DNA from: Opitutaceae bacterium EW11
Lineage (GTDB): Bacteria; Verrucomicrobiota; Verrucomicrobiia; Opitutales; Opitutaceae
Direction: 5' to 3'
Assembly (NCBI GenBank): GCA_003054665.1
Contig: QAYY01000001.1
Location: 62,001 to 126,000 of the forward strand
Length of the DNA stretch: 64,000 bases
Both the position numbers and the translations under genes were made by a program. A model generated the notes under the pieces. It had not been told where the DNA came from, did no database searches, and was given only the letters and a program-made list of their open reading frames with translations. Shown here one piece after another: positions 2-16,475 of the stretch (its first letter is position 1; each line of letters opens with the position of its first letter).

Positions 2-3000
2 TCCTTCAGGAACCCGCAACGGAACTACTCCCGTATCCAGGAACTGACGACCTACGACCCGGCAGCCCCTGTGCCCGCCGCGGGACTCCAACTGCCCGTC
101 CGGCGCACGCCTTCCGCCATGCCGCCGCGCAACGAAGTCGCGGATTCCCCGGAGTCGCTTTCCACCCCGGCCTTCCTCCCCGGATATGTCAGCTGGGAGC
201 ACGCGATCGGGCATCACGATCCGGTCACGGACGTCTTTTCGCTCGGCCTCCTGCTTGCGAGCCTCGCCTGCAATCTGGACTTCACTCGCCTCGAAGACCT
301 GAAGCGCTTCGCAAAACACCGCGAAAACCTCTTCGAACTCAACAAGCGACTCCACCCGGTCGTTTCGCGCGTGATCGTGCAGATGACGGAGCTCGACCGC
401 CACGAGCGGGCACCGGATCTCGGTCAGATCATCGGAACGCTCGAGACTTACCGGGACCAGCCGGTCGACTTCGATCTTTCCGGGTACGAGGCGTCGACGC
501 CTGCCGACCGGCGCCGGCTGATCCGCGACACTCTGAGGGACCGGCTTTTCGAAATCTCCCGCCGCAACCGTCTGCTCTATTTCCGCGACACGCTGCAGAC
601 GCTGAATCTCACCATCGCGTCCGTCCCGATCGTGAGCAATCCAACCAGCATCCGGCCGGAGCAGCTTTTCGTCTGGCAATCGGAGGTCGCCGCGGACCTT
701 TCCCAAGGCCATCCCCTCTCGCTCGGCAAATGGCTGCGGTTGGAGGACTCGCCCTACATTCCCAGCGTCCTCGACAAGATCATCACGGAAGCCCGCCGGG
801 ATCGCGCGGAATTCGGCTTCGCCCAGCTCCGGCTGGTGCTCTGCTTTTTGCGCTGGCACAACCTGAAGGAGGCGCCCGAGGAACGCATCCACTCACCGCT
901 TCTGCTGCTCCCGGTGGAGCTTTCCAAGCGCCGAGGCGTGCGAGACGCCTACGTGCTGGCTCCCGTTTCCTCCGAGGCGGAGGTGAATCCCGCGCTGCGC
1001 CATCATCTGAAAACGCTCTATGGGATCGCGCTTCCCGAATCGATCGACCTCCAGCAGACATCGCTCGAGGCCTTCCACGCCCGGCTGCAGGAGCAAATCC
1101 GCGCGTCGGAGCCGGGAGTGACCCTCGACAAGCTCGACAGCCCGCGGATCGAGGCGCTGCACACCATTGCACGCCAACGCGTCGAACAGTGGCGCAAGCG
1201 GCTCCGGTCTCAGGAAACGGCGAACCCGCGCATGGAGGCTGAATCCGCCGGCGGCATCCTCAGCTCCGCATCAGCCGCCGAGACCGCAACGTCCTACCCG
1301 CCAACCGAGGACGTGCTCGCGGCCGAGGAGCCTCCGCGGCGGCGCACCGCGCCGCGGCCGGACGACCCACACAGCGGGAATCCGTATCGCTGGGCGTTCG
1401 ATCTCTGCAATCTCACGCTCGGCAATCTCCACTACCGGAAAATGACGCTCGTGCGGGATTACGCGAATCTCGCCGAGGAGGGCGTCTCGAGCGCGGGTTT
1501 CGACGCCGTCTTTTCCGTCGAGCCCAAGAACGCCGACGAGCCGTGCGACGACTCCTTCCCGCTTCGAGATCAATATCCGATCATACCGTGCGATTCGGCC
1601 CAAGCCGCCGCGGTTGCCCGTTCGCGCCGCGGCACGAGCTTCATCATTCAGGGCCCGCCGGGAACGGGGAAATCGCAGACGATCACCAACCTAATAGCCG
1701 ACTACATCGCCCGAGGACAACGCGTCCTTTTTGTCTGCGAGAAGCGCGCGGCCATCGACGTGGTATTCCACCGCCTTCGTCAGCAGGGCCTGGACGAGCT
1801 GTGCTGCCTGATCCACGACTCGCAGAACGACAAAAAGACGTTCATCCAAAACCTTAAGGAGACCTACGAACGCTGGTTGGCGGAGCCGGTGGACGAGGAG
1901 GCCGAGCGCAGTCGCGAACAGACACTCCACGCCATCGAGCACGACGTGGAAGCGCTGGACAGATTCTCCCGGGGAATGACCCACACGGCTCAGGTCGCCG
2001 GACTGCCGACGCGCCGCCTCATCCATCGCTTGGTCGAACTCACCGATCGCCGGACTTCACTACAACCGGAGACCGAGGAGCTGATCACCCCCTACTCCCT
2101 CTGGCTCACGCACGGCGCCGTGGTCGAGCGACTCGACCAGGCGGTGCGCGCACTTGGCCAGGAAAACGTTTTCGCACGCCATCCATTCCGCTGGCTTGCC
2201 CGCGATGCGATTCTCTCGCCGAGGCCGCTGGAGTACGTCCAGCAACGACTCGATACGATCGAGCCCCTCCTCGATGCGCTGGAAAGCAGCCTGGAGCTGT
2301 CGGGCCTGCCCGAGGGTGTCTGGGACACGCTTCCGGACATCGAAGCCATCCTGAACTACTCGCGGCGGATCCTGCCGCTGGCAGAGCGGGCTCTGCTGTC
2401 CCTGCTGGAGCCGTCCAGCCCCCTCTCCGCCCAACTCCACCAGTCGATCGCCGACATCGACGCCGCGGAGAAGGCCTGGACGGCGGCGAAAAAGGCAACT
2501 CAGCACTGGCGATCCCGTCTCGAACCTTCCGATACGGTAAACGCCCTCGAAGTCGCGCGCCGTTACGAGGGCAGCGCTCGGCGTTTTCTCCATCCCAGTT
2601 TCTGGCGGCTCCGTCGGGCCGTGCATCAGCGCTACGATTTCGACGCCCACGCCGTCCCGCCGACCCTCCGCCGGGTTCTGGAGGATCTCCACGTCGAGCA
2701 ACTCGCGGAAAAAGCGTTTCTCGACCAAAAGGCGAAATTCATGGCGACGTTTGGCGAGCCGACTCCTGCCGGAATCGTTTCCCTCGTCGGCGAAGCCCGG
2801 GGCACTGAAGCTCCCCTCAAAGCGCCGGTGAGTGCATTCCGTCGCGCTCTCGTTGAAAACGCGGACGGCGCGACGGTCGTGCGCAGTCTGGCGGAATTGC
2901 AGCCGTCGTTTGCCCGGCTCCAAACGCTCCTGTCGGAGCTGCTCTGGCTGCACGAGCTGCTCGACGTCGAGGGACTCCGACAGGTGATCACGCACCTGCG

Positions 3001-5227
3001 CCGCGATGCCCGCAGCCTGCCCGATCTGATCCCGTTGCTGAGCGAGCTGATCGAAGCGCCGGAGTCTCTCCGCTACGCCTTGGCCAATGTCGACGTGCGC
3101 CTGGATCAGTTCGAAGCCGCCTCGGCCGACAAGACGCTCGTCTCGCTCTACCGCGCCGACACGGCGTTGACGCGTTTCGACGGCCGCATGCTCGATGCCT
3201 ACCGCGAGCGCCTGGAGAAACATTACCGGACGCTTCTGAAGAAAAACGCTTCCGTCATCCGGAACCGGGTGCGCCGGAGTTTTCGGGAGCACGTCCAGCT
3301 TTCGGGAGTGCCCACCGCGCAACTCACGGAAGAACAGATCGAGTTCAAGAAGGCGTATTCGTCGGGTCGGCACGATCTAGAGCACGAATTCGGGAAAACC
3401 GTCCGCTATCGTTCCATCCGCGACCTCGTGGCCGGCCCAAGCGGGAAGGTCGTGCGCGACCTGAAACCGGTCTGGCTGATGAGCCCGCTCAGCGTTTCCG
3501 ATACGCTGCCGCTGGACCCGGACGCCTTCGATGTGGTGATCTTCGACGAAGCAAGCCAGATCCCGGTCGAAGAGGCCGTGCCCGCCGTCTACCGCGCCAA
3601 GCAGGTGATCGTTGTGGGCGATCAGATGCAGCTCCCGCCGACGACGTTCTTCTCGAGCAGCCGCGACATTTCGGAGCCGCTCGAGACGGAGTCGGGCGGC
3701 GAACGGGTCGAGGTCGATCTCGACGCCGACAGCTTCCTCGCCCAATCGGAGCGCAATCTCCCGTCCACGCTCCTGGCCTGGCACTACCGGAGCCGCTATG
3801 AATCGCTCATCAGCTTCTCCAACGCCGCATTCTACGCCGGGAACCTGCTCACGATTCCCGACCGGCACCTCGCGTCGTCCCACGAAAACCCGCTGCTGAT
3901 CACCAGTCACGAACAGGCGCCCGCCAACGTAGAAGCCCTGCTCGCCCGGAGCATCAGCTTCCACTTCCTGGAAAACGGGATCTATGAGCAGCGCCGAAAC
4001 GGGCCGGAAGCGCGCTACATCGCCGAAACGGTTCGCGAACTGCTCCGCCGAAACGCCAAACAGAGCATCGGCATCGTCGCTTTCTCAGAGGCGCAGCAGA
4101 CCGAGATCGAGCGGGCCATGGACGCGCTTGCGGAGGAGGACAAGGAGTTCGGCGCACGCCTTGAGGCCGAGGTGAGTCGAGAGGAGAACGACCAGTTCTG
4201 CGGACTGTTCGTGAAGAACCTGGAGAACGTCCAGGGCGACGAACGCGACATCATCCTCCTCAGCATCTGTTACGGCAGGGATCGCTACGGTCGCATGTTG
4301 ATGAACTTCGGCCCGATCAACCAGCGCGGCGGCGAAAAGCGGTTGAACGTGATCTTCTCCCGCGCCCGCCACCACATGGCCGTCGTGTCGTCGATTCGCC
4401 ACGACGACATCACCAACGAATACAACGACGGGGCGAACGCCCTTCGGCATTTCCTGCGGTACGCCGAGAGTCTCTCCCGCGGAGATGTCCTCGACGCCCG
4501 CAGCGTGCTCGAGAATCTGAATCCCCTGAATCGTCGGACGCTCGCGCCGCCCACGGGCCGCGACGCCGTCGTCGAGCAGATCGCGCTGGCCCTCCGCCGG
4601 CGCGGGCACAGCGTCGACATCAACGTCGGGCAATCGCGATTCCGCTGCGATCTCGCCATCTGCTCGACGGATGGCAACACGTACGCGCTCGGCATCTTCG
4701 TCGACACCGACGCTCACTACGAGAACACCAACCTGATCGACCGGTATCTCACGCGTCCGTCGATCCTCGAGGCCTTCGGCTGGGAGGTGCTGATCGTTCT
4801 GAGCAAAGACTGGCTGCACGAACCCATGGCCGTCCTCGAACGCATCGAGCGCAGCCTGCGCGGGGAGACGTCGGAGGCCGCGAAGCTGCCGCAGATTCCG
4901 GCGGCGGTTCGCTCCGCACCCGCTCAATCGCCGGCGCAGTCCGCGGAGCCCACGGCCCCCGCAGCAGACTCCGAGCCGCGGCGCGGGAGCAAACGCCCCG
5001 CCGCCGCGGGCGCCATTCATCGGTATCTCGAATACCGCGACGCAGACACGCAGAAGTTCTGGGAAATCACCGTGTCCGGCGAAAGCTTCACGGTTCGCTT
5101 CGGTCGGGTCGGCACCGCGGGCCAGACTCAGCAGAAGCAGTTCCCTTCGGCCGAGAAGGCCACCAACGCCGCGCTGCAGCTCGTTCAGGCGAAACTGAAC
5201 AAGGGATTCCTGGAGTTGCGGCGGTAG
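2..5227 (+). CDS. Kinase-like / DUF4011 / SF1 helicase / endonuclease-like / WGR protein (5' end cut by window)
   Basis: The frame is open to the left edge, so the true start lies outside; the GTG at 71 is only the first start-like codon inside. Counting residues from that GTG, the order is: a protein-kinase C-lobe-like piece (about 38-130, with DVFSLGLLL like kinase subdomain IX; any catalytic loop would be upstream); DUF4011 (about 145-460, beginning RDRLFEISRRNRLLYF); a superfamily I helicase with Walker A GPPGTGKS near 528, a DEAS box near 1157 and NVQGDERDIILLS near 1386; a Vsr/MTES_1575-like endonuclease domain (about 1495-1598, with FRCDLAI and LGIFVD); and a WGR domain (about 1650-1715). 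Helicases of this group (COG1112) occur in known anti-phage systems such as Mokosh, which also pairs a kinase-like domain with a helicase. A defence role here is inference. The stop is followed by a bidirectional terminator, so no partner gene is co-transcribed downstream. Confidence 0.85.
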   Translation, partial: SFRNPQRNYSRIQELTTYDPAAPVPAAGLQLPVRRTPSAMPPRNEVADSPESLSTPAFLPGYVSWEHAIGHHDPVTDVFSLGLLLASLACNLDFTRLEDLKRFAKHRENLFELNKRLHPVVSRVIVQMTELDRHERAPDLGQIIGTLETYRDQPVDFDLSGYEASTPADRRRLIRDTLRDRLFEISRRNRLLYFRDTLQTLNLTIASVPIVSNPTSIRPEQLFVWQSEVAADLSQGHPLSLGKWLRLEDSPYIPSVLDKIITEARRDRAEFGFAQLRLVLCFLRWHNLKEAPEERIHSPLLLLPVELSKRRGVRDAYVLAPVSSEAEVNPALRHHLKTLYGIALPESIDLQQTSLEAFHARLQEQIRASEPGVTLDKLDSPRIEALHTIARQRVEQWRKRLRSQETANPRMEAESAGGILSSASAAETATSYPPTEDVLAAEEPPRRRTAPRPDDPHSGNPYRWAFDLCNLTLGNLHYRKMTLVRDYANLAEEGVSSAGFDAVFSVEPKNADEPCDDSFPLRDQYPIIPCDSAQAAAVARSRRGTSFIIQGPPGTGKSQTITNLIADYIARGQRVLFVCEKRAAIDVVFHRLRQQGLDELCCLIHDSQNDKKTFIQNLKETYERWLAEPVDEEAERSREQTLHAIEHDVEALDRFSRGMTHTAQVAGLPTRRLIHRLVELTDRRTSLQPETEELITPYSLWLTHGAVVERLDQAVRALGQENVFARHPFRWLARDAILSPRPLEYVQQRLDTIEPLLDALESSLELSGLPEGVWDTLPDIEAILNYSRRILPLAERALLSLLEPSSPLSAQLHQSIADIDAAEKAWTAAKKATQHWRSRLEPSDTVNALEVARRYEGSARRFLHPSFWRLRRAVHQRYDFDAHAVPPTLRRVLEDLHVEQLAEKAFLDQKAKFMATFGEPTPAGIVSLVGEARGTEAPLKAPVSAFRRALVENADGATVVRSLAELQPSFARLQTLLSELLWLHELLDVEGLRQVITHLRRDARSLPDLIPLLSELIEAPESLRYALANVDVRLDQFEAASADKTLVSLYRADTALTRFDGRMLDAYRERLEKHYRTLLKKNASVIRNRVRRSFREHVQLSGVPTAQLTEEQIEFKKAYSSGRHDLEHEFGKTVRYRSIRDLVAGPSGKVVRDLKPVWLMSPLSVSDTLPLDPDAFDVVIFDEASQIPVEEAVPAVYRAKQVIVVGDQMQLPPTTFFSSSRDISEPLETESGGERVEVDLDADSFLAQSERNLPSTLLAWHYRSRYESLISFSNAAFYAGNLLTIPDRHLASSHENPLLITSHEQAPANVEALLARSISFHFLENGIYEQRRNGPEARYIAETVRELLRRNAKQSIGIVAFSEAQQTEIERAMDALAEEDKEFGARLEAEVSREENDQFCGLFVKNLENVQGDERDIILLSICYGRDRYGRMLMNFGPINQRGGEKRLNVIFSRARHHMAVVSSIRHDDITNEYNDGANALRHFLRYAESLSRGDVLDARSVLENLNPLNRRTLAPPTGRDAVVEQIALALRRRGHSVDINVGQSRFRCDLAICSTDGNTYALGIFVDTDAHYENTNLIDRYLTRPSILEAFGWEVLIVLSKDWLHEPMAVLERIERSLRGETSEAAKLPQIPAAVRSAPAQSPAQSAEPTAPAADSEPRRGSKRPAAAGAIHRYLEYRDADTQKFWEITVSGESFTVRFGRVGTAGQTQQKQFPSAEKATNAALQLVQAKLNKGFLELRR

Positions 5228-6876: not shown

Positions 6877-7593
6877 CTACGCGTTGCCCTCGGCGTAGGC
6901 GCGCAGCTTCTGGCTGTCCATCACCGTGATTTTCGAACCGGCGACACGCAGGATGTTTTCGTCCCGGAACCGGGCAAAGGTCCGCGAAAGGGTTTCGCCC
7001 GCCACTCCCAGCTGCCCCGCCAGGACTTTCTTGGCGATCGGCAAGGTGAATACGGCCGGGCAGCCCGCGGCGGCAGCCGGACTCTGCTGCAAGAGCCAAT
7101 CCGCCAGGCGAGCCTCGATCTGGCGGCCGCGCGAATCGCGCAGCAACGTCACCAGCGTCTTCAGGTGCATGCTCATCGCCGCGAGCATGCGCAGGGCGAG
7201 GTCGGGCTTGCGCACGATCAGTTCGCGGAAGTGGGCTTTGCGAACCAGGATGACGCGCGACGGCTCCAGCGCGGTGGCGTTGGCGGGATAATTCTGGGCG
7301 GTCGCCAGCGCGATTTCGGCGAAACTCTCCGGCGGACGAAAAACACAGATGGTCCGTTCGCGTCCGTCGGGATTCAGGACCGAGATCGCGATCTGCCCCT
7401 GCTGGACCACGTAAAAGCCCTCGGCCGGATCGCCCTCGCGAAACAGCGTTTCGCCTTTCTGGAGCGACCGAACGTGGCAGCCGGCGGCGATGGCCTCGAT
7501 GTCCTCACTCGAGAGCGTGGCAAACGCCTGGCTCTGCCGCAGGCTCGCCAGAAGGGTCGTCTGGCGGTGGTCGTTCAGGGTTTCGGCAAGCAT
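6877..7593 (-). CDS. Crp/Fnr-family transcriptional regulator
   Basis: A 238-residue regulator with a cyclic-nucleotide-binding-like sensor domain (about 15-130, with LFREGDPAEGFYVVQQG) and a C-terminal winged helix-turn-helix (AGQLGVAGETLSRTFARFRD, about 170-195). It has none of the four clustered cysteines of oxygen-sensing FNR; only a single Cys lies near the N-terminus, which is more like the DNR/NnrR type that senses NO through haem. That assignment is inference. It is the last gene of a minus-strand run (double DUF2249 protein, membrane protein, DUF59 protein, regulator), and FNR-type boxes stand in front of this run and of the nos genes, so it may regulate both. The ATG at 7593 was chosen over an upstream start that adds unrelated residues. 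Confidence 0.9.
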   Translation of the reverse strand: MLAETLNDHRQTTLLASLRQSQAFATLSSEDIEAIAAGCHVRSLQKGETLFREGDPAEGFYVVQQGQIAISVLNPDGRERTICVFRPPESFAEIALATAQNYPANATALEPSRVILVRKAHFRELIVRKPDLALRMLAAMSMHLKTLVTLLRDSRGRQIEARLADWLLQQSPAAAAGCPAVFTLPIAKKVLAGQLGVAGETLSRTFARFRDENILRVAGSKITVMDSQKLRAYAEGNA

Positions 7594-7816
7594 GCTCGCC
7601 GTGAAATCTGGGTGATTGCACCAGCGTGGCAACTGCGACGAGCGAGCGGCGGCGTATCAACCGATCCGTCGGCCGCGGACAGGATCGTCGTGCGGCCGTA
7701 CGTCTGGGCACGGCGGGGCGTGCGACGACGGCACGGGCGGCAACGCCGTGCGGCGCAGCCGGGCCAACCGCGGCATGCCGACGCCAACGATGGAGGTCGA
7801 CTCGATCTCGCAACCG

Positions 7817-8128
7817 CTAGGCGCGGCCGAGCTGCTTCTTCGCTTCCTCGCTCAGCATCTCCGGCGTCCAGGGCGGTTCGAACACCAGTTGGATGTCGGC
7901 CGTCTTCTGTCCTGCCAGGCTGGATACCATGTTCTTCACGCCTTCGTAGATCCAGGAGCCAGAGGGACACGACGGCGTGGTCAACGTCATCACCACGTTC
8001 ACCGCCAGGGGCGTGCACTCCACGCTGTAAATCAGGCCGAGATCCACGATGTTCACGCCGAACTCGGGATCCGGGATCGTGGCGAGCGCCTGCCAGACCG
8101 CTTCGGGATTGGGCCAATCTTCACTCAT
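7817..8128 (-). CDS. DUF59 / MIP18-family metal-sulfur cluster assembly protein
   Basis: A 103-residue one-domain protein of the MIP18/PaaD/SufT group, which helps mature iron-sulfur proteins. Family hallmarks are DPEFGVNIVDLGLIY near residues 20-34, the cysteine-bearing MTLTTPSCPSG around 47-57, and the C-terminal FEPPWTPEML. The start codon overlaps the stop of the upstream membrane gene in an ATGA arrangement at 8125-8128, so the two are translationally coupled. The same frame stays open far upstream only because it runs antisense-like through that gene; those residues are not real. The client protein is unknown; the neighbourhood suggests a respiratory metalloprotein. Confidence 0.9.
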   Translation of the reverse strand: MSEDWPNPEAVWQALATIPDPEFGVNIVDLGLIYSVECTPLAVNVVMTLTTPSCPSGSWIYEGVKNMVSSLAGQKTADIQLVFEPPWTPEMLSEEAKKQLGRA

Positions 8129-9480
8129 GGGGAAACTCCCGTTCGCGCGACGCCGCGCAGAGGGGCGGCCGGTGCGGTCAAGGGCCGCCACAGATGCCGC
8201 AGCACTCCGACGAGATCCGCGATGAGAAAACCGACGCCGATCGCCAGCAGCCAGGCTCCGGCGCGCAGCAATTCGATATCCAAAAACCAAACACCGTACA
8301 CGAGCGGCGCCACCGCGATCCATTGCAGGGTCAAACCCACTCGGTGCAGCCAGGGTCGCGCGAGCGAACCCGCCGGCGGCGTCGGGCCGCGACCGACCTT
8401 CGGGCCATAGGCGCGCATCCAGACGAGAAACGGCACGATCTTGCACATCATCCCGCCGATCGCGGGCAGGAGCCCGCCCGCGACGATCACCACTCCGTAA
8501 ACCATGGCGTTGAATCCCCCCGCTGCCGAGCCGCCTGGCACCGTCGGCAGCGCCAGCACAAAGCCGATCACGGCGGCCAGCGCCAACCCGGCCATCCCGC
8601 AAAGGAAGAATTTCAGCCCCGGATCCAGCGCTCGTTTCTTCCGGGTCGCCAACGTCCGCGCAAGTCCCCACCCCGACGCGGCGAAACTCACCACGACCAC
8701 AAAGGCAAAAAGCGCCGACGCGGCACGCCAATGGAACGCGAGCGCCGGTGCGAGACCGAGCAGGCCCGCCTGGGTCAACCAGAGCCCCGACTTCACCGGA
8801 CGCCAGTTCGGAACCTCCCCCAGCGTGAACATCGGCACGAGCCGGAAACTCACGCCCTGAAGCAGCGTCGCGAAAAAGCCCACCAATCCGAGGTGCGCGT
8901 GGGCTCGCAACAGCGCCACGGGATCCGCAGGGATGAAGAACGTCGCGCGATTCGCCGCCAGCAACAGACCGACCAGCACCGTCACGACCAGCCAGGCCGG
9001 AGCCAGAATCAGGGACCATGCCACGGGATCCGTTTTTCGCGAACGGCGCACCGTCACCCAGGCGTTCACCGCGAAGAGGAAAACACCCACGGCCACCAGA
9101 GTGCCGAACGCTCCGAGCAACGGCAGATTCCACGTCCAGAATCCCGCCACCATCCCGGGCACGCCCATCCCGTGCAGTCCCAGGTGCCACCAGCCGGCGC
9201 GCTCGCTCCAAAGCGTCGTGCCGAGCGCCACCGGAGCCAGCTGGTAAACGGCTCCGCAGGCCACGGTGACGAAAAAGCCGAGTACCCAGGCATGCGTCAG
9301 CGCAATCACCCCGGGGTGAACGTGAGGAAGCCCCAATAACCCCGGCTGAAGCGCAAGTAGTCCGCTCGCCGCGGCGAGCCAGACAAGGCCCAGCCCCATG
9401 AACGCCAGCGGCAGCCGGCCCTGCGAAGCCAGCCAGCTGCCGGGAAGTGGCGCCGCCGAGATGTTGGGTCGCGGCGTCAC
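8125..9480 (-). CDS. Polytopic membrane protein, NnrS / haem-copper-oxidase-subunit-I-like
   Basis: A 451-residue integral membrane protein with about twelve hydrophobic helices. Conserved-looking histidines sit inside membrane segments (LPHVHPGV at 51-58, LTHAWVLGF at 61-69, LLRAHAHLGLVGF at 190-202), a pattern seen in haem-binding proteins of the NnrS group and in distant relatives of cbb3 oxidase subunit I. I cannot name the subfamily with certainty. The start is a GTG at 9480, only 4 nt after the stop of the DUF2249 gene; the downstream end overlaps the DUF59 gene by 4 nt. Operon membership with a Crp/Fnr regulator, behind an FNR-type box and beside nos genes, points to a role in nitrogen-oxide metabolism or NO tolerance. 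Confidence 0.8.
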   Translation of the reverse strand: MTPRPNISAAPLPGSWLASQGRLPLAFMGLGLVWLAAASGLLALQPGLLGLPHVHPGVIALTHAWVLGFFVTVACGAVYQLAPVALGTTLWSERAGWWHLGLHGMGVPGMVAGFWTWNLPLLGAFGTLVAVGVFLFAVNAWVTVRRSRKTDPVAWSLILAPAWLVVTVLVGLLLAANRATFFIPADPVALLRAHAHLGLVGFFATLLQGVSFRLVPMFTLGEVPNWRPVKSGLWLTQAGLLGLAPALAFHWRAASALFAFVVVVSFAASGWGLARTLATRKKRALDPGLKFFLCGMAGLALAAVIGFVLALPTVPGGSAAGGFNAMVYGVVIVAGGLLPAIGGMMCKIVPFLVWMRAYGPKVGRGPTPPAGSLARPWLHRVGLTLQWIAVAPLVYGVWFLDIELLRAGAWLLAIGVGFLIADLVGVLRHLWRPLTAPAAPLRGVARTGVSP

Positions 9481-9484
9481 GGAA

Positions 9485-10027
9485 TCAGACGCGGCTGAGA
9501 ACGGTCACCCAGCTGCCGTCCGCTTGAGCGCGGCTCTCCGCGGAAAATCCGCGGGTCTTCGCTTCACCGAAAAGATGGCAGGGCTCGCGATCCGTCCAGG
9601 CGCGGAGCTTCTTCTCCGACGGCAACGATTCGAGCGCGTCGAGGATGCGGATGAGGGGCTCCGGCGGTTCGAGCCCGCGGGCGTCGACGTCGAGCGTTTC
9701 GCCGCAAGCGGAAGGCGCGGACTTCGTCGCCGTGGGATTGCCGAAACCGGCCGGCACCTCGACCGCCGCAAACTTTGTGATCTTCACGCGGAAATCCTCG
9801 GGTCCGCGTTCGATGTAATCCCAGCCGAAGGCGTTCCCGAATTCCGCTTCGAACTGATAACGGAGAGGGAGGGGATCGTGGTCGTTGAGGAGGACAAAAT
9901 AGCCTCCCACCGGAAGACCGAACCAGCGTTGGAAAATCTGCCGGTGCTTCACGCGGCAGGGAATCGGGCGAACGTCGAAGACCGCCTGCTCATCCGCAGC
10001 GGCCGGAGTGTGATTGTGCGTATTCAT
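9485..10027 (-). CDS. Protein with two DUF2249 domains
   Basis: A 180-residue soluble protein made of two DUF2249 units (about 17-84 and 112-178), each beginning with an FDVRPIPC / LDVDARGLEPPEP-type strand and containing the helix-turn typical of this TusA/SirA-like fold. DUF2249 proteins are often found with denitrification and haem-copper genes, but their biochemical role is not established. It is the first gene of a four-gene minus-strand operon. The ATG at 10027 (MNTHNHTPAAAD) is preferred over an upstream start. An FNR-type box centred 63 nt upstream suggests induction at low oxygen or by NO. Confidence 0.85.
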   Translation of the reverse strand: MNTHNHTPAAADEQAVFDVRPIPCRVKHRQIFQRWFGLPVGGYFVLLNDHDPLPLRYQFEAEFGNAFGWDYIERGPEDFRVKITKFAAVEVPAGFGNPTATKSAPSACGETLDVDARGLEPPEPLIRILDALESLPSEKKLRAWTDREPCHLFGEAKTRGFSAESRAQADGSWVTVLSRV

Positions 10028-10083
10028 GGAAAAATGGCGCTCTTGGCGTGGACGCACTCTCGCAGATTCCCGTCCGGCGCGGT

Positions 10084-10097
10084 TTGATTCAGGTCAA
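10084..10097 (-). promoter_or_regulatory. FNR/DNR-type box before the DUF2249 operon
   Basis: TTGATTCAGGTCAA matches the FNR consensus TTGAT-N4-ATCAA at nine of ten half-site bases. It lies in the 258-bp gap between the end of nosY and the start of the DUF2249 gene, centred 63 nt before the ATG at 10027. That would allow class II activation with a leader of about 22 nt. No good -10 hexamer could be picked out. Confidence 0.7.
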
Positions 10098-10285
10098 ACG
10101 GGAACGGCAAAGACGGAGAAAAATGCTTTCGGTCCGCGCGGGGAGGAATCCGCGCCCACATCGGAACGAAACACGGCAGCTCCGGGCATCTCACCGGCAT
10201 CCGATTCGGATGCCCAGGCGCGGACAGCGCCGCGCCCTCCAGCGCCACATTCCGCGAATGGACGACGCGACGGTGCTGGCGCGCC

Positions 10286-11095
10286 TCAACCGTCCGTCCG
10301 GCGGCGGGCGCCGAGCCAGGCGGCGACCGCGGCGGCGAGTAACCAGCTACTCACTACGGCTCCAAGCCAGACGGCGGCATGCGTCACCCACCAGCCGGCG
10401 AGCCGGCCGGCGTCGAGACCGCTGAAGGCCGCGCGCTCCGCGGAAAAGAGCACCGTCACGCGAAAAGCATCCAAGGGATTCGCCATGAGCGGCAGCACCC
10501 AGACGTCCGGGTGTTGCTGCAGGACCGGCACGCCTGCGATGCCGAGCAGCAGCAGGTCGGTGCCAAACAGCGCCGCAAACCAAAGCGCAATCGTGGCGAT
10601 CAGACCGCGCACGCCGTCCCGCACCCAGAAACCCACCGCCAAACCCGCGAGAGCGCAGACGCCGCTCACGCCGGCCGCCCCCGCGCCGACCAGAAGCAGT
10701 TCGCGCGAGCCTCCTCCGGCCACAGCGGCAGGAACGATCAACAGCGACGCGCTTGTCGACACCAGCAGGGCAAGCGCCGCCGCTTTTCCCGCCAGCCACG
10801 GGCCGATTCCCGCCGGCTGGCCGATCAGCCAGGAAAACTCCTCCGCCTCCGCGTGCGCCGAACTGAGACCGAGGAGCAGAGCCGAAAGCGACACCGCGTA
10901 GAGCACCGCATGGAGGATCCAGTACCCGGCACCGCTCATGAGCCCCTCGCCAGGAGTGAGCAGCGGCAGGAATCCCGCCGCGACCAGGAGCAGAACGTGC
11001 GCATGGAGAAACCGGTTCAAACGATGACTCAGCCATTCGCGGCGAGCCGCGGCCCGGGCCACCTGCAGGAACGAAGGAATGGGGCGTGCGCTCAT
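10286..11095 (-). CDS. nosY: NosY-type ABC transporter permease
   Basis: A 269-residue inner-membrane protein with six hydrophobic helices, an ABC-2-type permease. With NosF it forms the transporter that, together with NosD, supports assembly of the copper-sulfide centre of nitrous oxide reductase in the periplasm. The family is assigned from helix pattern, length and position directly after nosF; the start ATG overlaps the nosF stop by 4 nt (11092-11095). It is the last gene of the nos run, and no nosL follows inside the window. The next gene downstream has its own FNR-type box. Confidence 0.85.
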   Translation of the reverse strand: MSARPIPSFLQVARAAARREWLSHRLNRFLHAHVLLLVAAGFLPLLTPGEGLMSGAGYWILHAVLYAVSLSALLLGLSSAHAEAEEFSWLIGQPAGIGPWLAGKAAALALLVSTSASLLIVPAAVAGGGSRELLLVGAGAAGVSGVCALAGLAVGFWVRDGVRGLIATIALWFAALFGTDLLLLGIAGVPVLQQHPDVWVLPLMANPLDAFRVTVLFSAERAAFSGLDAGRLAGWWVTHAAVWLGAVVSSWLLAAAVAAWLGARRRTDG

Positions 11096-11901
11096 GACTC
11101 GACAACGACGGGGCCGACCGAAAGAGCGCGCGCCTCAGCGGCCGCTCCGCGGCGTTGTATCCGTTCCTCGGACACCGTTGCACCGGGCAAGACGTTTCTC
11201 TCGCATCGCTCCGCAGCAGCGCGGACATGCCCGACCCCGCCGAAGAACCCGTCGCGCAAACGTTCGGGAGCCAGTTCGCCGGCGCAACGCCCCTCCTCGA
11301 TCAGCAGGCAACGATCCGCCCTGCCCTCCCACTCGCCCAGCAGGTGCGTCGCGACAACGACCGTGCGTCCCCGCTTCGCCTCCCCCGTGAGGAAGTCCTG
11401 CAGTCGCTGGCGCCATTCCGGATCCAGACTCAAGCCAGGTTCGTCGAGCAAAAGGACCGGCGCCTCGGCGAGCGCGAATACCGCCAGCGCCAACCGCTGC
11501 CGCAGCCCTCCGGAGAGCTTCGCGGTCGGCGTGCGGGCAAACTCCGCGATACCCCACGCCTCGAGCGCGGTGGGCACACGTTTCGCTTCTCGCCCTCTCA
11601 GCTCGGCATAAAACGTGGCTACCTGACCGACGGTGAGGCGCGGGTGAAACCGGGGCGCCTGCGGAAGAAACGAAATCTGGCTGAGCGCCTCGCGACGCTG
11701 CGTCCTCAGGTCGAAACCTCCGATTCCAATCGTGCCGGAATCCGGCTCGGCCAATCCCGCCAGCAGACGCAGCGTGGTGCTTTTCCCGGCGGCGTTGGCT
11801 CCGACGACAAGCGTGATCGCGCCAGGCTCCGCGACGAGATCGAGGCCGCGGAGCACGGCGCGCGAGCCGTAGGATTTCTGAAGGTCTCGGGTAAAAATCA
11901 T
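11092..11901 (-). CDS. nosF: NosF ABC transporter ATP-binding protein
   Basis: A 269-residue ABC ATPase at the cytoplasmic face, partner of NosY in maturation of nitrous oxide reductase. Walker A appears as VGANAAGKSTT (about 33-43), the signature as KLSGGLRQRLAL, Walker B as PVLLLDEPGLSLD, and the switch histidine in VVATHLLGEWEG. It lies 30 bp downstream of nosD and overlaps nosY by 4 nt. The last 40 or so residues after the ATPase core are not conserved in any way I recognise. Confidence 0.92.
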   Translation of the reverse strand: MIFTRDLQKSYGSRAVLRGLDLVAEPGAITLVVGANAAGKSTTLRLLAGLAEPDSGTIGIGGFDLRTQRREALSQISFLPQAPRFHPRLTVGQVATFYAELRGREAKRVPTALEAWGIAEFARTPTAKLSGGLRQRLALAVFALAEAPVLLLDEPGLSLDPEWRQRLQDFLTGEAKRGRTVVVATHLLGEWEGRADRCLLIEEGRCAGELAPERLRDGFFGGVGHVRAAAERCERNVLPGATVSEERIQRRGAAAEARALSVGPVVVES

Positions 11902-11931
11902 GGGGAAAAGGCGTCCTGGGCGCGTGTCAGC

Positions 11932-13236
11932 TCATCGTGCGACCTCGTTGGCGCGAATGAGCGGGCGCGGATCCGTCACGCCAGGAATCCCGGGCAGCGC
12001 GATCCGCCGGTGAATAAACCGCACGAGCTGCTCGCCGGGACTGGCAGAGAGGAGACCGATGGCCGGAAAGGTCCGGCGCCAACCGCCGAAAAGATCGGGT
12101 TCGTGGTGCGGTACATCCGCGATCCCGTCGCGGTTCAAGTCCAGCGCGACCTCGCCGTCCCAGTGGTTTCCGCGGCCGGCGGCGGCCCAGACGTTGGCGG
12201 AATTCGTTCCACTGGTATCGATCGGGTGGATATTGCCGGAGAAATCGTTCTCGAAAATCCGCGCTCCCTGAGTGCTGTCGCTCAGGCGGAGGCCGACGTA
12301 GTTTCCCGCGACGCGGTTTTTCGAGATCGAGAGGTTGTTCGAATTCTCGATGTAGAGGCCGAGCGTGTTGCCCTCGATCCGATTGGACTCGATGCGCGTG
12401 TCGTCGATGGCCTGGAGGAGCAACCCGTAGGCGCGCTGACTGCGGTTCGAAACAAAGCGATTCCCGCGCAGGACGAGCCGCTTCGAAAACATCAGCGCCG
12501 CACCGGCGGCGTTTTCGGTGAAGGTGTTCCCGTCGAATTCGTTGTCGTCCGAGTACATGTAGTGCAGTCCGTAGCGGACGCGCTCGACCCGGTTTCCCCG
12601 CACGACGGTTTTTTTGGTGAACGAGAAATATACGCCGTCGCGAGTCCCGCGGATGATGTTGCCCTCGATCAGGTGCCCCGAGGAATTCCAGAGGTGAATC
12701 CCGTTGCCCCGGCGGTCCTGGCTCAACGGCTCCGCGCAGAACTCGCCGCTCGCGGCGTCGGCAGGATTGAGTCCGGACCGGAGAGGATCGTCGATCGTTT
12801 CGCGAGAAGCGCTGTCGCCGAGCACGACGTTGCGCAGGATCCGGCAGCCGTCCGCTTTTCGCACGTAGATGCCGTGCAGCATGTCGAGCACGCGATTGTC
12901 GCGAATGACGGCGCGAGCGCCGGAGATGTGGATGGCGGCGTTGTCGTCGCTGAGGCTCCGACCGGAGCCGCGGACCAGAAAGCCCGCGAGTTCCACGTCG
13001 GCGGCGCGGATGGTGACGACATTGCCGGTGCCGTCGCCGCGAAGGATCGCTCCGGGCGCGCCGATCAGATGGAGCGGTTTCTCGATCACAAACAGCCCCG
13101 CGTAGTCGCCCGCCGGCACGTTCAGAACCGCGCCCGGGGCCGACTCGGTGATCTGGCGCCGGAGCACGTCGCCCGCCGGGTTGCCAAAGCCGGCCAGGGG
13201 CAGCGCGGCGAAGAGGAGCAACCCGCGGAGGCGCAT
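11932..13236 (-). CDS. nosD: NosD periplasmic copper-centre maturation protein
   Basis: A 434-residue secreted protein with an N-terminal signal peptide (MRLRGLLLFAALPLAGFG) followed by a right-handed parallel beta-helix built from many short repeats of the type IxxNxIxGNxxGLYIENS. NosD is required with NosF and NosY to build the CuZ site of NosZ. The start ATG at 13236 shares one base with the stop of the preceding gene (TGATG), so the two are translationally coupled; the frame open upstream of it is a shadow of that gene. Residue pairs such as GIYVRKADGCRI and GLHYMYSDDNEFDGN are typical of the family. Confidence 0.93.
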   Translation of the reverse strand: MRLRGLLLFAALPLAGFGNPAGDVLRRQITESAPGAVLNVPAGDYAGLFVIEKPLHLIGAPGAILRGDGTGNVVTIRAADVELAGFLVRGSGRSLSDDNAAIHISGARAVIRDNRVLDMLHGIYVRKADGCRILRNVVLGDSASRETIDDPLRSGLNPADAASGEFCAEPLSQDRRGNGIHLWNSSGHLIEGNIIRGTRDGVYFSFTKKTVVRGNRVERVRYGLHYMYSDDNEFDGNTFTENAAGAALMFSKRLVLRGNRFVSNRSQRAYGLLLQAIDDTRIESNRIEGNTLGLYIENSNNLSISKNRVAGNYVGLRLSDSTQGARIFENDFSGNIHPIDTSGTNSANVWAAAGRGNHWDGEVALDLNRDGIADVPHHEPDLFGGWRRTFPAIGLLSASPGEQLVRFIHRRIALPGIPGVTDPRPLIRANEVAR

Positions 13237-13853
13237 CAGGCGGTCTCCTTCCGCGACAGGATCATCGCGACGATCAGGAAAACCGGAAAGAGGGCGAACA
13301 GCCAGGCGCCGGGTTCCGGCAGGCTGGTCTGCACGAAATTCGCGATCCGCTGGCTGCCGATCATCACGGGAGTGAACGGCTGGATACGCATCGGCGCGTG
13401 CGGATTGAGCTGATGGCCGTACGTGTAGAGCCGGTAGTAGAAGCTCCCCAGCGAGAACGCGCCGAAATAGAGGAAAAGCACGCCGAGATCGATCAGGCTG
13501 ATCATCCGGCCCAGCACCGCGGCGCGCAGGGCCAGCAGGGCGAAGACTCCGAAGGCGAACGGCATCCACTTCATCTCGAGGAAATCCGCCTGTTCGAGGG
13601 GCTTCATCCCGATGTAGTGGTTCAGCGTATTGATTTCCTGGAGATCCTGCCCTTCGTGGCCGCCGACGAGCTGGTAGGCGTAGATGCGGAGGCTTAGTCC
13701 CTCCTGATACTGCGGTGCGACCAGACTGATCCGCCAGAGCGGCAGAAACACCGCCGACACCACCGCGGCAGCCGCCGCGATGAGGAAGAGCCTCGACCAC
13801 AGGTTGAGCGGCTGATGAAGGAAACGAATCTCGCGGTGGAACAGATCATTCAT
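13236..13853 (-). CDS. NosB-like membrane protein of clade II nos loci
   Basis: A 205-residue membrane protein with four clear hydrophobic helices: one near the N-terminus (LFLIAAAAAVVSAVFLPLW), two in the middle, and one at the C-terminus (WLFALFPVFLIVAMIL). A periplasmic loop follows the first helix. Clade II nos clusters typically carry a membrane protein called NosB beside nosZ. Position, size and topology fit, but the name is inferred because I recognise no sequence motif. The ATG at 13853 was chosen; a GTG at 13871 would add six residues. It is coupled to nosD by a TGATG junction. A strong terminator lies between it and nosZ. Confidence 0.75.
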   Translation of the reverse strand: MNDLFHREIRFLHQPLNLWSRLFLIAAAAAVVSAVFLPLWRISLVAPQYQEGLSLRIYAYQLVGGHEGQDLQEINTLNHYIGMKPLEQADFLEMKWMPFAFGVFALLALRAAVLGRMISLIDLGVLFLYFGAFSLGSFYYRLYTYGHQLNPHAPMRIQPFTPVMIGSQRIANFVQTSLPEPGAWLFALFPVFLIVAMILSRKETA

Positions 13854-13939
13854 GGCAAAAATGGGAGGCACGGCGGGCCGAATCCCGACCCCGGCAGGAG
13901 CACTGCGGCGGCCGGACGCCGCGCGCGTCGGCGGCGCTC

Positions 13940-13998
13940 AAAAAAAAGGGGGCTGGGAGCTTTCTCTGTCCGGGTCTGGCCTGCCGCTCCCAGCCCCC
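13940..13998 (-). terminator. Strong terminator directly after nosZ, inside the nos run
   Basis: On the minus strand a perfect 13-bp GC-rich stem (13998-13986 pairing with 13960-13948) with a 25-nt loop is followed by eight U (13947-13940). It begins 6 nt after the nosZ stop codon. Transcription of azurin-nosZ should largely end here, leaving the NosB-like, nosD, nosF and nosY genes dependent on read-through or on a promoter in the 80 bp that follow. Confidence 0.88.
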
Positions 13999-14003
13999 GC
14001 GTA

Positions 14004-15908
14004 TCACTTTGCAGCGACTTCTGCGGGCTGCACCGCTAGATAACCCTGCATCTCCTGGTGCAACGCCGAGCAGAAGTTGGTGCAGTAGAACGGAAACACG
14101 CCGGACTTCGTCATCTTGAGGCGCACCGTCTTGGTTTCGCCGGGATCGATCACGACGTTCACGTTCTGCTCGACGATGCCGAGGCCGTGGATCATGTCGG
14201 GCGTCTGCTCGACATTGGTCACGTGGATGACGAGTTCGTCGCCCACCTTGGCGTCGACGCGGTCGGGAATGAAACGGCTGCGGATGGCGATCATCTTAAC
14301 CTCGACGACCTTCCCCTTGCGCACGACGCCGGCGTCCTTCTGGTCCCAAACCGCGTCGGGATCCTTGTTCTCAGCTTTCGGATACACCTCGATCGGCTTG
14401 GCGTCGGAAACCTTCAGGATCTGGGCGAAGTGAGGCTCGGGCTCGGTAAACGTCTCGTACAGCATCTGCATCTTCGAACCGGTGATATCGATCAGCTCGC
14501 TGTCCTCGGGCTGGGAGGGCCCGACGGAGACGTGGCGGCCCTTGGACATCTTGTTCATCGCGACCAGATACTGGCCGTACGGCTTGCGCGTATCGCTGCC
14601 GCCGATCACGAGGTGGCCGATGTTGTAGTGAACCGCGATCTTGTCGAGGACGACCTTGTTGAGATCGGCGCGCTCCTCGGGAGACCAGGGAGGCAGCTTC
14701 CATTTCGCGACCGCGGACTCGATGAAAAGCGAGGTGTAGGCGTTGCCCTGACCGTCGTATTGCGTGTGAAGCGGCCCCAGTCCGACCGGCACTTCGCCTT
14801 CGAGCACCGACTCGTATTTGATGATCGGAACGCCGCGGAATTCGCCGTCGAACGCCTTCTTCGCGATCGCGTCCTGGATCTTGTTGAAATCGAAGACCGA
14901 GGCGACGGGCTGCAGCTTTCCGGAGGCGACGATCCAGCGGCCAGACGGGTCGGTGTCGATGCCGTGCGGCGATTTCGGAACGGGCAGGTAATAAAGCACG
15001 CCCGGCACCTTCGCGGGATCGATCATCGGCACGCCGTCCATCGTGCCGGCGCGGCCTTCGCGCACGGCGGTCTCGGCGGCACGCCAGTTGACGATCGCGG
15101 CATAGTCGCGGTCCTTCTGCGTCGAGTTGGCCTCGAGCGTGTCGTGCGCCATCTCGGTGTTGTAAGACGTCCAGAACGCCCAACCGCTGCTCGGCCCCTT
15201 GCCGGTCGAGCCGAGATCCCAGTCGAACGGCGGCGTGAGAATCTGCCAGCCGACGCTCATCTCGCCCGACTTCGGGTCGACGCGGATGCCGCTCACGGCG
15301 CCGTTGAACTCCTTCTCGTAATCCGCGGGATCGGCGTAGCGCCCCTTCGGAAGCGGCACGGAGAAGCGTGTCGCGACGAGCACGTATTCGGTGTTGTCGG
15401 TGACAAACGATGAACCGTGATTACCCATCGAGTTCGGGATGGGGCCGAGAATCTGCTTGGTCTTGAAGTCGCGCAGATCGATCCGGGCGATGCGGTTGTT
15501 GGCGTTGTCGTTCACGAACAACCAGCGGCCGTCGTAGAGGCCGTCGGTCTTGGAGAGGCCCGGATGATGGACGTCGCCCCAGGTGTAGTCGCCGAGCATC
15601 GCCTTCGTCTCCTCGTCGAAGCCGTAACCGGTTCCGGGATACTTGGCGAAGACCGGAATCGTGGTGATATGCCGCATCGAGGGCAGCCCCGCGACGTAGA
15701 CCTGGCCGGAGTGGCCGCCGGAATAAAACAGGTAATACTCGTCTTTCTGTCCCGGGGCGACCCAGGTGCGTTCGGCGGCGCTCTTGCCTTCCGAAACCGA
15801 GGCGGTTCCGGCGGCGGCGCTGGCGGCGCCCGGCGGTTTGCAGGCGGGCAGGGTCAACAGCGTCGCCGCGGCGGCGCCGGAAAGGAGGAAACGGACGGTG
15901 TGTTTCAT
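14004..15908 (-). CDS. nosZ: Nitrous oxide reductase, clade II (Sec-type, putative lipoprotein)
   Basis: A 634-residue periplasmic copper enzyme that reduces N2O to N2. The seven-bladed propeller carries the histidines expected for CuZ: H114 and H115 (DVHHP), H164 (GNHGS), H255 (MAHD), H315 (SPHG), H381 (LHTQYD) and H432 (IGHLV). The C-terminal cupredoxin domain carries CuA ligands H574, C609, C613, H617 and M620 in CTNFCSALHQEM. The signal peptide lacks a twin-arginine motif, which places the protein in clade II. It contains LLTLPAC, a plausible lipobox with Cys23, so the mature enzyme may be membrane-anchored. It lies 18 bp downstream of an azurin-like gene and is followed at once by a terminator. 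Expression is probably driven by the FNR-type promoter before the azurin gene. Confidence 0.97.
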   Translation of the reverse strand: MKHTVRFLLSGAAAATLLTLPACKPPGAASAAAGTASVSEGKSAAERTWVAPGQKDEYYLFYSGGHSGQVYVAGLPSMRHITTIPVFAKYPGTGYGFDEETKAMLGDYTWGDVHHPGLSKTDGLYDGRWLFVNDNANNRIARIDLRDFKTKQILGPIPNSMGNHGSSFVTDNTEYVLVATRFSVPLPKGRYADPADYEKEFNGAVSGIRVDPKSGEMSVGWQILTPPFDWDLGSTGKGPSSGWAFWTSYNTEMAHDTLEANSTQKDRDYAAIVNWRAAETAVREGRAGTMDGVPMIDPAKVPGVLYYLPVPKSPHGIDTDPSGRWIVASGKLQPVASVFDFNKIQDAIAKKAFDGEFRGVPIIKYESVLEGEVPVGLGPLHTQYDGQGNAYTSLFIESAVAKWKLPPWSPEERADLNKVVLDKIAVHYNIGHLVIGGSDTRKPYGQYLVAMNKMSKGRHVSVGPSQPEDSELIDITGSKMQMLYETFTEPEPHFAQILKVSDAKPIEVYPKAENKDPDAVWDQKDAGVVRKGKVVEVKMIAIRSRFIPDRVDAKVGDELVIHVTNVEQTPDMIHGLGIVEQNVNVVIDPGETKTVRLKMTKSGVFPFYCTNFCSALHQEMQGYLAVQPAEVAAK

Positions 15909-15926
15909 GTGGGGCGGAAAAACGGC

Positions 15927-16475
15927 TTACTCGACGATCAGCTCGCCCTTCATCCCCACCTGCATGTGGCCGGGATAGGTGCAGAGAAACGGGTACCGTC
16001 CGGGTTGCTTCGGCGCGTAGAAGAGGGCGGTGTCGGATTCCTTGGGCCCGAGCAGTTTCGTCGAGGCGAGGATGCGATCCTTGAACGAGGCCGGGATGTA
16101 TTCGGTCGTGGCCGCCTCGATCGCCGCCGCGGTGACGGCGTTCAGGTCGGTGCCCGCCGTCATCAGCACCCAGTTGTGTCCCATCGAAAACTTCGGAACG
16201 GTGCCTTCGTTGGTAAGCGTAACGGCCAGCGCCTCTCCCGGCTTGGCGTGGATTTCGGTGACGCTGAACTTCATCGTGTCGTTCGCCGTGATGGCGACGG
16301 CGCGGCCGGACTTGGGCTTCTCGGCGGATGCGGCCGGGGCTGCGGGGGCGCTCGCGGCGGCGGCCGCATGCTGCGCGTGAGCCGACTCGGAGGGCTTGTC
16401 CGACTGGCCGCAGCCGGTCAGGCCGAGGATCGCTGCAACAAAGGAGACAAACAGGACAGGTGATACGGGTTTCAT
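15927..16475 (-). CDS. Azurin-like blue copper lipoprotein
   Basis: A 182-residue cupredoxin with a lipoprotein signal peptide (AILGLTGC, Cys22) and an alanine-rich linker to about residue 58. Type 1 copper ligands are visible: H100 in SMGHNW, and C165, H170 and M175 in CTYPGHMQVGM. Azurins are small electron carriers; being the first gene of the transcription unit that ends with nosZ, it is the likely electron donor to the reductase. This partnership is inferred from position. The gene starts 40 nt downstream of a perfect FNR-type box, and no Shine-Dalgarno sequence is evident. Confidence 0.92.
   Translation of the reverse strand: MKPVSPVLFVSFVAAILGLTGCGQSDKPSESAHAQHAAAAASAPAAPAASAEKPKSGRAVAITANDTMKFSVTEIHAKPGEALAVTLTNEGTVPKFSMGHNWVLMTAGTDLNAVTAAAIEAATTEYIPASFKDRILASTKLLGPKESDTALFYAPKQPGRYPFLCTYPGHMQVGMKGELIVE

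What the first reader, a model, noticed from the sequence alone, without database searches (positions are those of the whole stretch)
2..5227. One-protein defence candidate: kinase-like + DUF4011 + helicase + endonuclease-like + WGR
Five domain types are seen in one chain of more than 1718 residues. COG1112 helicases with DUF4011 are found in anti-phage systems, and in Mokosh a kinase-like domain accompanies the helicase. Here a Vsr/MTES_1575-like nuclease and a C-terminal WGR domain (known in DNA-damage-sensing PARPs) are also present. A sensor-kinase-helicase-nuclease fusion ending in WGR would be a distinct architecture. The role is inference.
Basis: partly seen in the sequence, partly recalled or inferred. 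Interest (0 to 1): 0.72.

Follow-up and report, generated by a model that had tools for sequence, protein, structure and literature searches.

The report
Protease-partnered giant helicase, here partnerless
The finding is the greater part of one very large bacterial DNA/RNA-helicase protein that carries a dead half of a protein kinase and a probably disabled nuclease; in every relative whose contig reaches far enough upstream it sits beside a gene for a protein-cutting enzyme, and the copy in this genome has lost that partner, which makes a new kind of helicase-controlled protease system, possibly antiviral, testable.

Summary
The domain reading is right, but its meaning changes. The complete gene (C11:61792-67227; the window holds all but the first 70 codons) encodes an 1811-aa protein: kinase-like lobe, DUF4011, SF1 helicase, MTES_1575 nuclease fold, WGR.

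The "kinase" is only a C-lobe. The N-lobe is missing, and the catalytic HRD is A-P-L, with no Asp in any of 82 relatives. The nuclease lacks the acid of the canonical IECDG motif in all 71 relatives that cover it. The helicase motifs are intact.

A scan of about 85,000 species genomes found 112 relatives; the best 80 were studied. They come from at least five phyla. In 78 of 80 a soluble M48 zinc metalloprotease gene lies on the same contig, usually directly upstream with a 4-bp overlap; the two exceptions are contig edges. So the unit is normally a two-gene protease-helicase operon. It is patchy (4 of 252 family genomes).

The window genome lacks the family protease, and its protein alone lacks a YSY...PLG linker motif found in the other 81. 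That suggests a docking or cleavage site (one case only).

Defence is plausible but unproven. Best reading: an orphaned member of a helicase-gated metalloprotease system. Known relatives (Hhe, ProA, PDC-S37, Mokosh) differ.

The parts
2..5227 (+). Gene for the 1811-aa protein; residues 71-1811 and the stop lie in the window. The first 70 codons lie upstream (from C11:61792).
   Evidence: relatives start at the same methionine
2..457 (+). Pseudokinase C-lobe (residues 8-222, window part 71-222): APE-type Glu136 (81 of 82), Asp147 and Gly152 of the D-x-x-S-x-G helix, Arg203 and Arg206 (82 of 82) kept; HRD replaced by A49-P50-L51; no N-lobe
   Evidence: AlphaFold model; Z 14-15 to PknB; column counts
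542..1009 (+). DUF4011 domain, residues 251-406
   Evidence: PF13195 E 1.4e-12; in 74 of 74 family members
1175..1411 (+). Linker, residues 462-540, that lacks the family motif (D/E)YSY-x(4-7)-PLG found in the other 81 members
   Evidence: no frameshift remnant
1592..1942 (+). Helicase RecA-like domain 1 (AAA_11), residues 601-717; Walker A QGPPGTGKSQT at 1649-1681
   Evidence: PF13086 E 1.9e-18; invariant motif
1949..3361 (+). Long, weakly conserved, probably helical insertion between the helicase motifs, residues 720-1190 (function unknown)
   Evidence: alignment A1; secondary structure not tested here
3530..4393 (+). Helicase motif II (IFDEASQ, residues 1250-1256), motif III and RecA-like domain 2 (AAA_12, residues 1322-1534); all motifs conserved
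   Evidence: PF13087 E 6e-17
4574..4855 (+). MTES_1575 (Vsr-like) nuclease fold, residues 1595-1688. D1620 kept; the Glu of canonical I-E-C-D-G is Phe1636 here (window 4697-4699) and never Glu in 71 relatives
   Evidence: PF18741 E 6e-15
5021..5215 (+). WGR domain, residues 1744-1808 (present in 40 of 68 scorable relatives)
   Evidence: PF05406 E 1.3e-15, 6e-17

Best explanation
The gene is a member of a distinct family of giant SF1 helicases. Its normal form is a two-gene operon: a soluble M48 zinc metalloprotease followed by the helicase (pseudokinase C-lobe, DUF4011, helicase, degenerate MTES_1575 nuclease fold, optional WGR). Most likely mechanism (inferred): the helicase is the sensor and motor. 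It surveys DNA or RNA, helped by the catalytically altered nuclease fold and the WGR domain as nucleic-acid-binding modules. When it engages abnormal nucleic acid, such as replicating or damaged phage DNA, ATP hydrolysis releases or positions the metalloprotease, which is the effector. The pseudokinase lobe and the YSY...PLG linker are candidate protease-docking or regulatory elements. In the window genome the protease and the linker motif have both been lost, so this copy is an orphan: still an intact helicase, but probably unable to work in the ancestral way. Shown: family membership, the pairing, the dead kinase half, the missing nuclease acid, intact helicase and protease motifs, and absence of partner and motif in this genome. 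Inferred: sensor and effector roles, the docking role, and defence as the purpose.
For: Pairing: a family M48 gene is on the same contig in 78 of 80 loci, the other two being contig edges with 305 and 3 nt upstream. It lies within three genes upstream in 71 of 73 testable loci, 50 of them with a 4-bp overlap, and about 8 kb away in a Planctomyces clade. Distance matrices correlate, r 0.886 against at most 0.17 permuted. An independent single-chain fusion of an M48-family domain to a COG1112 helicase with MTES_1575 exists in G029. Protease competence: H-E-x-x-H and downstream Glu and Asp conserved in 96-100%; soluble M48 fold, Z 9.8 to 3c37, 9.4 to ZMPSTE24, 9.2 to BepA. Nuclease acid lost in 71 of 71 but kept in 10 of 11 unpaired DUF4011 helicases examined. 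Kinase Asp absent in 82 of 82. Helicase motifs invariant. Orphan state: no family protease in G000; a profile search gives only a 21-bit match inside one of three ordinary M48 genes. Linker motif absent only in G000. Defence hints: nearest models are anti-phage families; type XIII retron directly downstream in four loci; patchy presence, 4 of 252 and 7 of 383 genomes.
Against: No experiment. Most neighbourhoods show few known defence genes, and the window locus shows none of note. The tree follows phyla to a fair degree (8 label changes, least possible 4, shuffled mean 30), so transfer is less rampant than in typical defence genes. D1620 and D1638 persist in the nuclease fold, so residual or altered nuclease activity is possible. 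Motif loss together with partner loss rests on one genome (about 1 in 75 by chance).
Confidence: 0.45

Rival explanations
1. Genome maintenance rather than immunity: the pair clears proteins stuck on DNA. The helicase, with WGR binding breaks, unfolds or exposes a DNA-protein crosslink or blocked complex, and the metalloprotease cuts the protein away, in the manner of the eukaryotic SPRTN/Wss1 proteases.
For: A zinc protease paired with an SF1 helicase and a WGR domain fits. The protease has a weak SprT-like match (E 7e-5, below cut-off, in one member) and a DNA-protein-crosslink protease structure appears far down the fold list. Neighbourhoods are mostly ordinary and phylum-level inheritance is fair.
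Against: Presence in under 2% of relatives is unusual for a repair pathway. Best structural matches are M48, not SprT. The nearest helicase families are anti-phage. Repeated adjacency to retrons.
Confidence: 0.25
2. One reading: a self-contained single-protein defence enzyme in which the helicase unwinds foreign DNA and the C-terminal nuclease cuts it, as proposed for Hhe-like or Mokosh type II proteins.
For: The MTES_1575 fold is clear, D1620 and D1638 are kept, helicase motifs are intact, and single-gene relatives such as PDC-S37 and Hhe exist in defence databases.
Against: The acid of IECDG is never Glu in 71 family members but is kept in 10 of 11 controls. The protease association would be unexplained.
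Confidence: 0.17
3. The window copy is simply decaying: after the protease was lost the helicase has no function here and is on its way out.
For: Partner absent, linker motif lost, changes at 9 of 296 strongly conserved positions (3.0% against a family median of 0.7%), long branch 0.62.
Against: The 5.4-kb frame is intact with all helicase motifs and a WGR domain, which would not persist long without selection; several paired members deviate more.
Confidence: 0.12

Closest known systems
Anti-phage protein ProA (NCBIfam NF058533) and PADLOC candidate PDC-S37
   Same: DUF4011-type SF1 helicase core plus MTES_1575-like C-terminal part; best-scoring named models (694 and 700 bits)
   Different: 694 bits is far below the ProA cut-off of 1500; the best match starts only at residue 579, so the pseudokinase lobe is not covered; no model of a defence protease matches the partner in PADLOC or, above its cut-off, in NCBIfam
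Hhe (NCBIfam NF042953, PADLOC Hhe)
   Same: DUF4011, SF1 helicase, nuclease fold in one chain
   Different: 468 bits against a cut-off of 2000; the canonical IECDG acid is lost here
Mokosh (MkoA, MkoC)
   Different: The best stretch of the MkoA match covers helicase only; no phospholipase D domain found; kinase half has no N-lobe and no catalytic Asp
Hachiman HamAB (PMC12278908)
   Same: Proposed logic: a sensor helicase constrains and then activates a separate effector enzyme on DNA damage
   Different: Hachiman's effector is a nuclease, whereas here the candidate effector is an M48 protease; analogy only, no homology claimed
SPRTN/Wss1/SprT DNA-dependent metalloproteases (own knowledge)
   Same: Zinc metalloprotease working on DNA with helicases
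   Different: Best fold matches are M48 peptidases; SprT-like match weak and below cut-off
Type XIII retron (HEAT-like, SWIM and reverse-transcriptase genes)
   Same: Lies directly downstream in L067, L081, L082 and L095
   Different: A separate system; not present at the window locus

Membership tests
M48-paired pseudokinase-DUF4011 helicase family (defined here) | Full-length homology including the N-terminal C-lobe and DUF4011 | tested here: met
   48-52% identity over residues 5-1809 in G323, G251, G315; A1; 112 relatives
M48-paired pseudokinase-DUF4011 helicase family (defined here) | Family M48 metalloprotease gene alongside | tested here: not met
   Present in 78 of 80 relatives; the profile gives only one 21-bit match in G000, inside an ordinary M48 gene
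M48-paired pseudokinase-DUF4011 helicase family (defined here) | YSY...PLG linker motif | tested here: not met
   Recognisable in the other 81 of 82
Protein kinase | C-lobe fold | tested here: met
   Z 15.3 to PknB 1o6y, 161 residues, rmsd 4.2
Protein kinase | N-lobe with glycine loop and lysine | tested here: not met
   Upstream in-frame stop; relatives start at the same point
Protein kinase | Catalytic HRD aspartate | tested here: not met
   Leu in 80 of 82, never Asp; assignment by sequence pattern and fold
SF1 helicase (Upf1-like, COG1112) | Walker A, motif II DEAS, motifs III, V and VI | tested here: met
MTES_1575 nuclease | Profile match above cut-off | tested here: met
   55.5 bits, cut-off 38.2
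MTES_1575 nuclease | Acidic residue of I-E-C-D-G | tested here: not met
   0 of 71 relatives; 10 of 11 controls have it
WGR | Profile match above cut-off | tested here: met
   57.7 bits, cut-off 22
ProA (NF058533) | Equivalog cut-off 1500 bits | tested here: not met
   694 bits
Hhe (NF042953) | Equivalog cut-off 2000 bits | tested here: not met
   468 bits
Mokosh | Full-length MkoA or MkoC, including kinase or PLD part | tested here: not met
   Best matched stretches lie in the helicase; no PLD family found
Anti-phage defence system | Location in defence islands | tested here: inconclusive
   Retron XIII in 4 of 80 loci, otherwise few defence models
Anti-phage defence system | Protection against phage | not testable with these tools
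   needs plaque assays

The most novel reading that the evidence does not exclude
A previously undescribed two-gene immune system in which a nucleic-acid-sensing helicase, carrying a half pseudokinase and a disarmed nuclease, gates a soluble M48 metalloprotease through a YSY...PLG linker; the window genome shows what remains after the effector is lost.
Probability: 0.35. Interest if true: 0.78.

Novelty: new variant of a known kind. Interest (0 to 1): 0.56.

Why it matters
Helicase-nuclease defence systems are known; a helicase locked to a metalloprotease across at least five phyla is not in the databases searched here. If the protease is the effector, it would add proteolysis to the outputs that DNA-sensing helicases can switch on. 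The family also offers a rare kinase relic: a kept C-lobe with no N-lobe. The orphan in this genome gives a natural experiment that points to one short linker motif as the likely contact or cut site, which can be tested directly.

Tried and rejected
Active kinase: rejected. Missing left part of the gene hiding a kinase N-lobe: rejected by fetching the contig.

Protease remnant upstream in G000: tblastn gave only noise, best E 0.006 in the part shown. Frameshift hiding the linker motif: none in any frame.

Carriage on plasmids: no match to the Denitromonas protease by tblastn or to its protease-helicase DNA by megablast; only generic helicase matches. Viral contigs: no relative found with P0001 as a single query.

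ProA and the M48 pairing in the literature: nothing found in the held library, so I could not read how ProA was defined.

A first count of four Planctomyces loci as protease-less was wrong: in three of them the M48 gene is several kb upstream (about 8 kb), and the fourth is cut by the contig edge.

Defence enrichment of neighbours was not compared with a matched control set, so it is descriptive only. The unusual 181-aa nucleotidyltransferase-like and 109-aa genes inserted between protease and helicase in L120 and L082 were not pursued. A direct profile comparison of the C-lobe with one bacterial kinase gave only a short 30-column match around the D-x-x-S-x-G helix; the fold comparison was the decisive test.

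Full report
WHAT IS THERE. The window is G000:C11:62001-126000. The open frame at its left edge was completed from the contig. The protein has 1811 residues from ATG C11:61792; an alternative ATG with an AGGAGG site lies at C11:61720. An in-frame stop stands about 220 nt upstream of the first of these. Pfam finds DUF4011, AAA_11, AAA_12, MTES_1575 and WGR, all above cut-off. No kinase family is found, not even among 74 relatives.

THE KINASE-LIKE PART. A model built from 74 relatives (A3) is confident (pLDDT 89). Residues 1-224 align with Ser/Thr kinases at Z 14-15 (PknB, IRAK4), and the tighter alignments run from PknB residue 97 onward, that is, along the C-lobe. The relatives begin at the same methionine, so the N-lobe is absent from the family. 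Where kinases have (I/V)-H-R-D the family has V-A-P-L: Ala in 82 of 82 and Leu in 80 of 82, never Asp. The structural residues of the lobe are kept (Glu136, Asp147, Gly152, Arg206). This is a half pseudokinase.

THE NUCLEASE PART. In 10 of 11 unpaired DUF4011 helicases that I could read, the motif is R-(I/L)-(D/N)...I/V-E-C/G-D-G (one has I-V-C-D-G). In this family the Glu is Leu, Phe, Val, Met, Ile or Gln in 71 of 71 members that cover the site; Phe1636 here. D1620 (58 of 71) and D1638 remain. The active site is therefore altered and probably weak or dead; its activity was not tested.

THE HELICASE AND WGR. All SF1 motifs are intact and nearly invariant. WGR is optional: 40 of 68 scorable members; the G265 member ends right after the nuclease fold.

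THE PARTNER. In five of the first six full relatives the gene is preceded, with a 4-bp overlap, by a gene of about 390-420 codons with an HExxH motif; the window genome is the sixth. Pfam calls it Peptidase_M48. Its model (pLDDT 95) matches M48 structures best (3c37 Z 9.8, ZMPSTE24 9.4, BepA 9.2). A scan of genome contigs with the N-terminal alignment A2 gave 112 relatives, of which 80 loci were kept, from Verrucomicrobiota, Planctomycetota, Pseudomonadota, Bacteroidota and Myxococcota. An M48 gene of this family is on the same contig in 78 of 80; the two others are cut off by the contig edge 305 and 3 nt upstream. It lies within three genes upstream in 71 of 73 testable loci, 50 of them with the 4-bp overlap, and in a Planctomyces clade it is kept about 8 kb away. 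Protease and helicase distances correlate at r 0.886 against a permuted maximum of 0.17; shared vertical descent contributes to this. In G029 a second locus fuses an M48-family domain (profile E 4e-27) directly to a COG1112 helicase with an MTES_1575 domain. The active-site residues of the protease are conserved.

THE WINDOW COPY IS AN ORPHAN. The G000 genome (completeness 99.99) has three M48 genes of the ordinary kind. The single-sequence search for the partner finds nothing; the profile search finds only a 45-residue, 21-bit match (E 3e-4) inside one of those ordinary genes. No remnant lies upstream. The helicase of G000 departs from the family at 9 of 296 strongly conserved positions, four of which lie in one linker motif, (D/E)YSY-x(4-7)-PLG-x-x-(L/M/I)F. 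The motif is recognisable in the other 81 members and gone only here (79 of 82 by the strict pattern, two more with ASY or FSY), with no frameshift remnant. The pattern is absent from 675 unrelated proteins of the same loci. One event is not proof, but partner and motif going together suggests that the motif contacts, or is cut by, the protease.

DISTRIBUTION AND CONTEXT. Presence is patchy: 4 of 252 genomes of the family, in four genera, and 7 of 383 in the class. The tree keeps phyla largely together, with 8 label changes where 4 is the least, so transfer is occasional. Four loci have a type XIII retron (HEAT-like, SWIM, reverse transcriptase) directly downstream. Otherwise few neighbours match PADLOC models, and the window locus, beside asnS and a nos cluster, has no defence neighbours of note: the two models that matched (mad3, AriA) fit ATPase-type genes and no complete system.

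MECHANISM. By analogy with Hachiman, where a sensor helicase unleashes a separate effector (PMC12278908), I propose that the helicase senses abnormal nucleic acid and gates the metalloprotease. The substrate, the trigger and the purpose are unknown. DNA-protein crosslink repair is the main rival. For the orphan, either a reduced helicase-only role or decay is possible.

NAMED FAMILIES. PDC-S37, ProA and Hhe are the nearest models, but scores are far below the curated cut-offs for ProA and Hhe in every member tested, and none of the libraries searched gave a system pairing such a helicase with M48.

LIMITS. Genes in relatives were called by my own script. Many are metagenome bins, so contig edges and mis-binning occur. 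Selection of loci used N-terminal motifs, so relatives without the C-lobe would be missed. The neighbour tally had no matched control.

Noticed in passing
L066:3205-8916 (G029:C9): Single 1903-aa protein joining an M48-family protease domain, a partial DUF4011, a COG1112 helicase and MTES_1575, next to an N6 methylase and an HSP90-like ATPase gene; looks like a related, fused system.
   Followed up: partly
L024:15708-19210 and L025:4482-5768 (G029); also L067, L081, L082: Type XIII retron genes (HEAT-like, SWIM_XIII, RT_XIII) directly downstream of the helicase.
   Followed up: partly
window 6877-16475: Nitrous-oxide-reductase cluster (nosZ propeller, NosD, ABC transporter parts) with a Crp/Fnr-type regulator, in a Verrucomicrobiota-type genome.
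   Followed up: no
L116, L124, L129: In a Planctomyces clade the M48 gene and the helicase gene are separated by about 8 kb of metabolic genes, yet both are kept.
   Followed up: partly
L120:9280-9825 and L082:4986-5315: Small genes (nucleotidyltransferase-like, and a 109-aa protein) inserted between protease and helicase.
   Followed up: no
window 1949-3361: Large, poorly conserved insertion within the helicase between the first helicase motifs and motif II, of unknown role.
   Followed up: no
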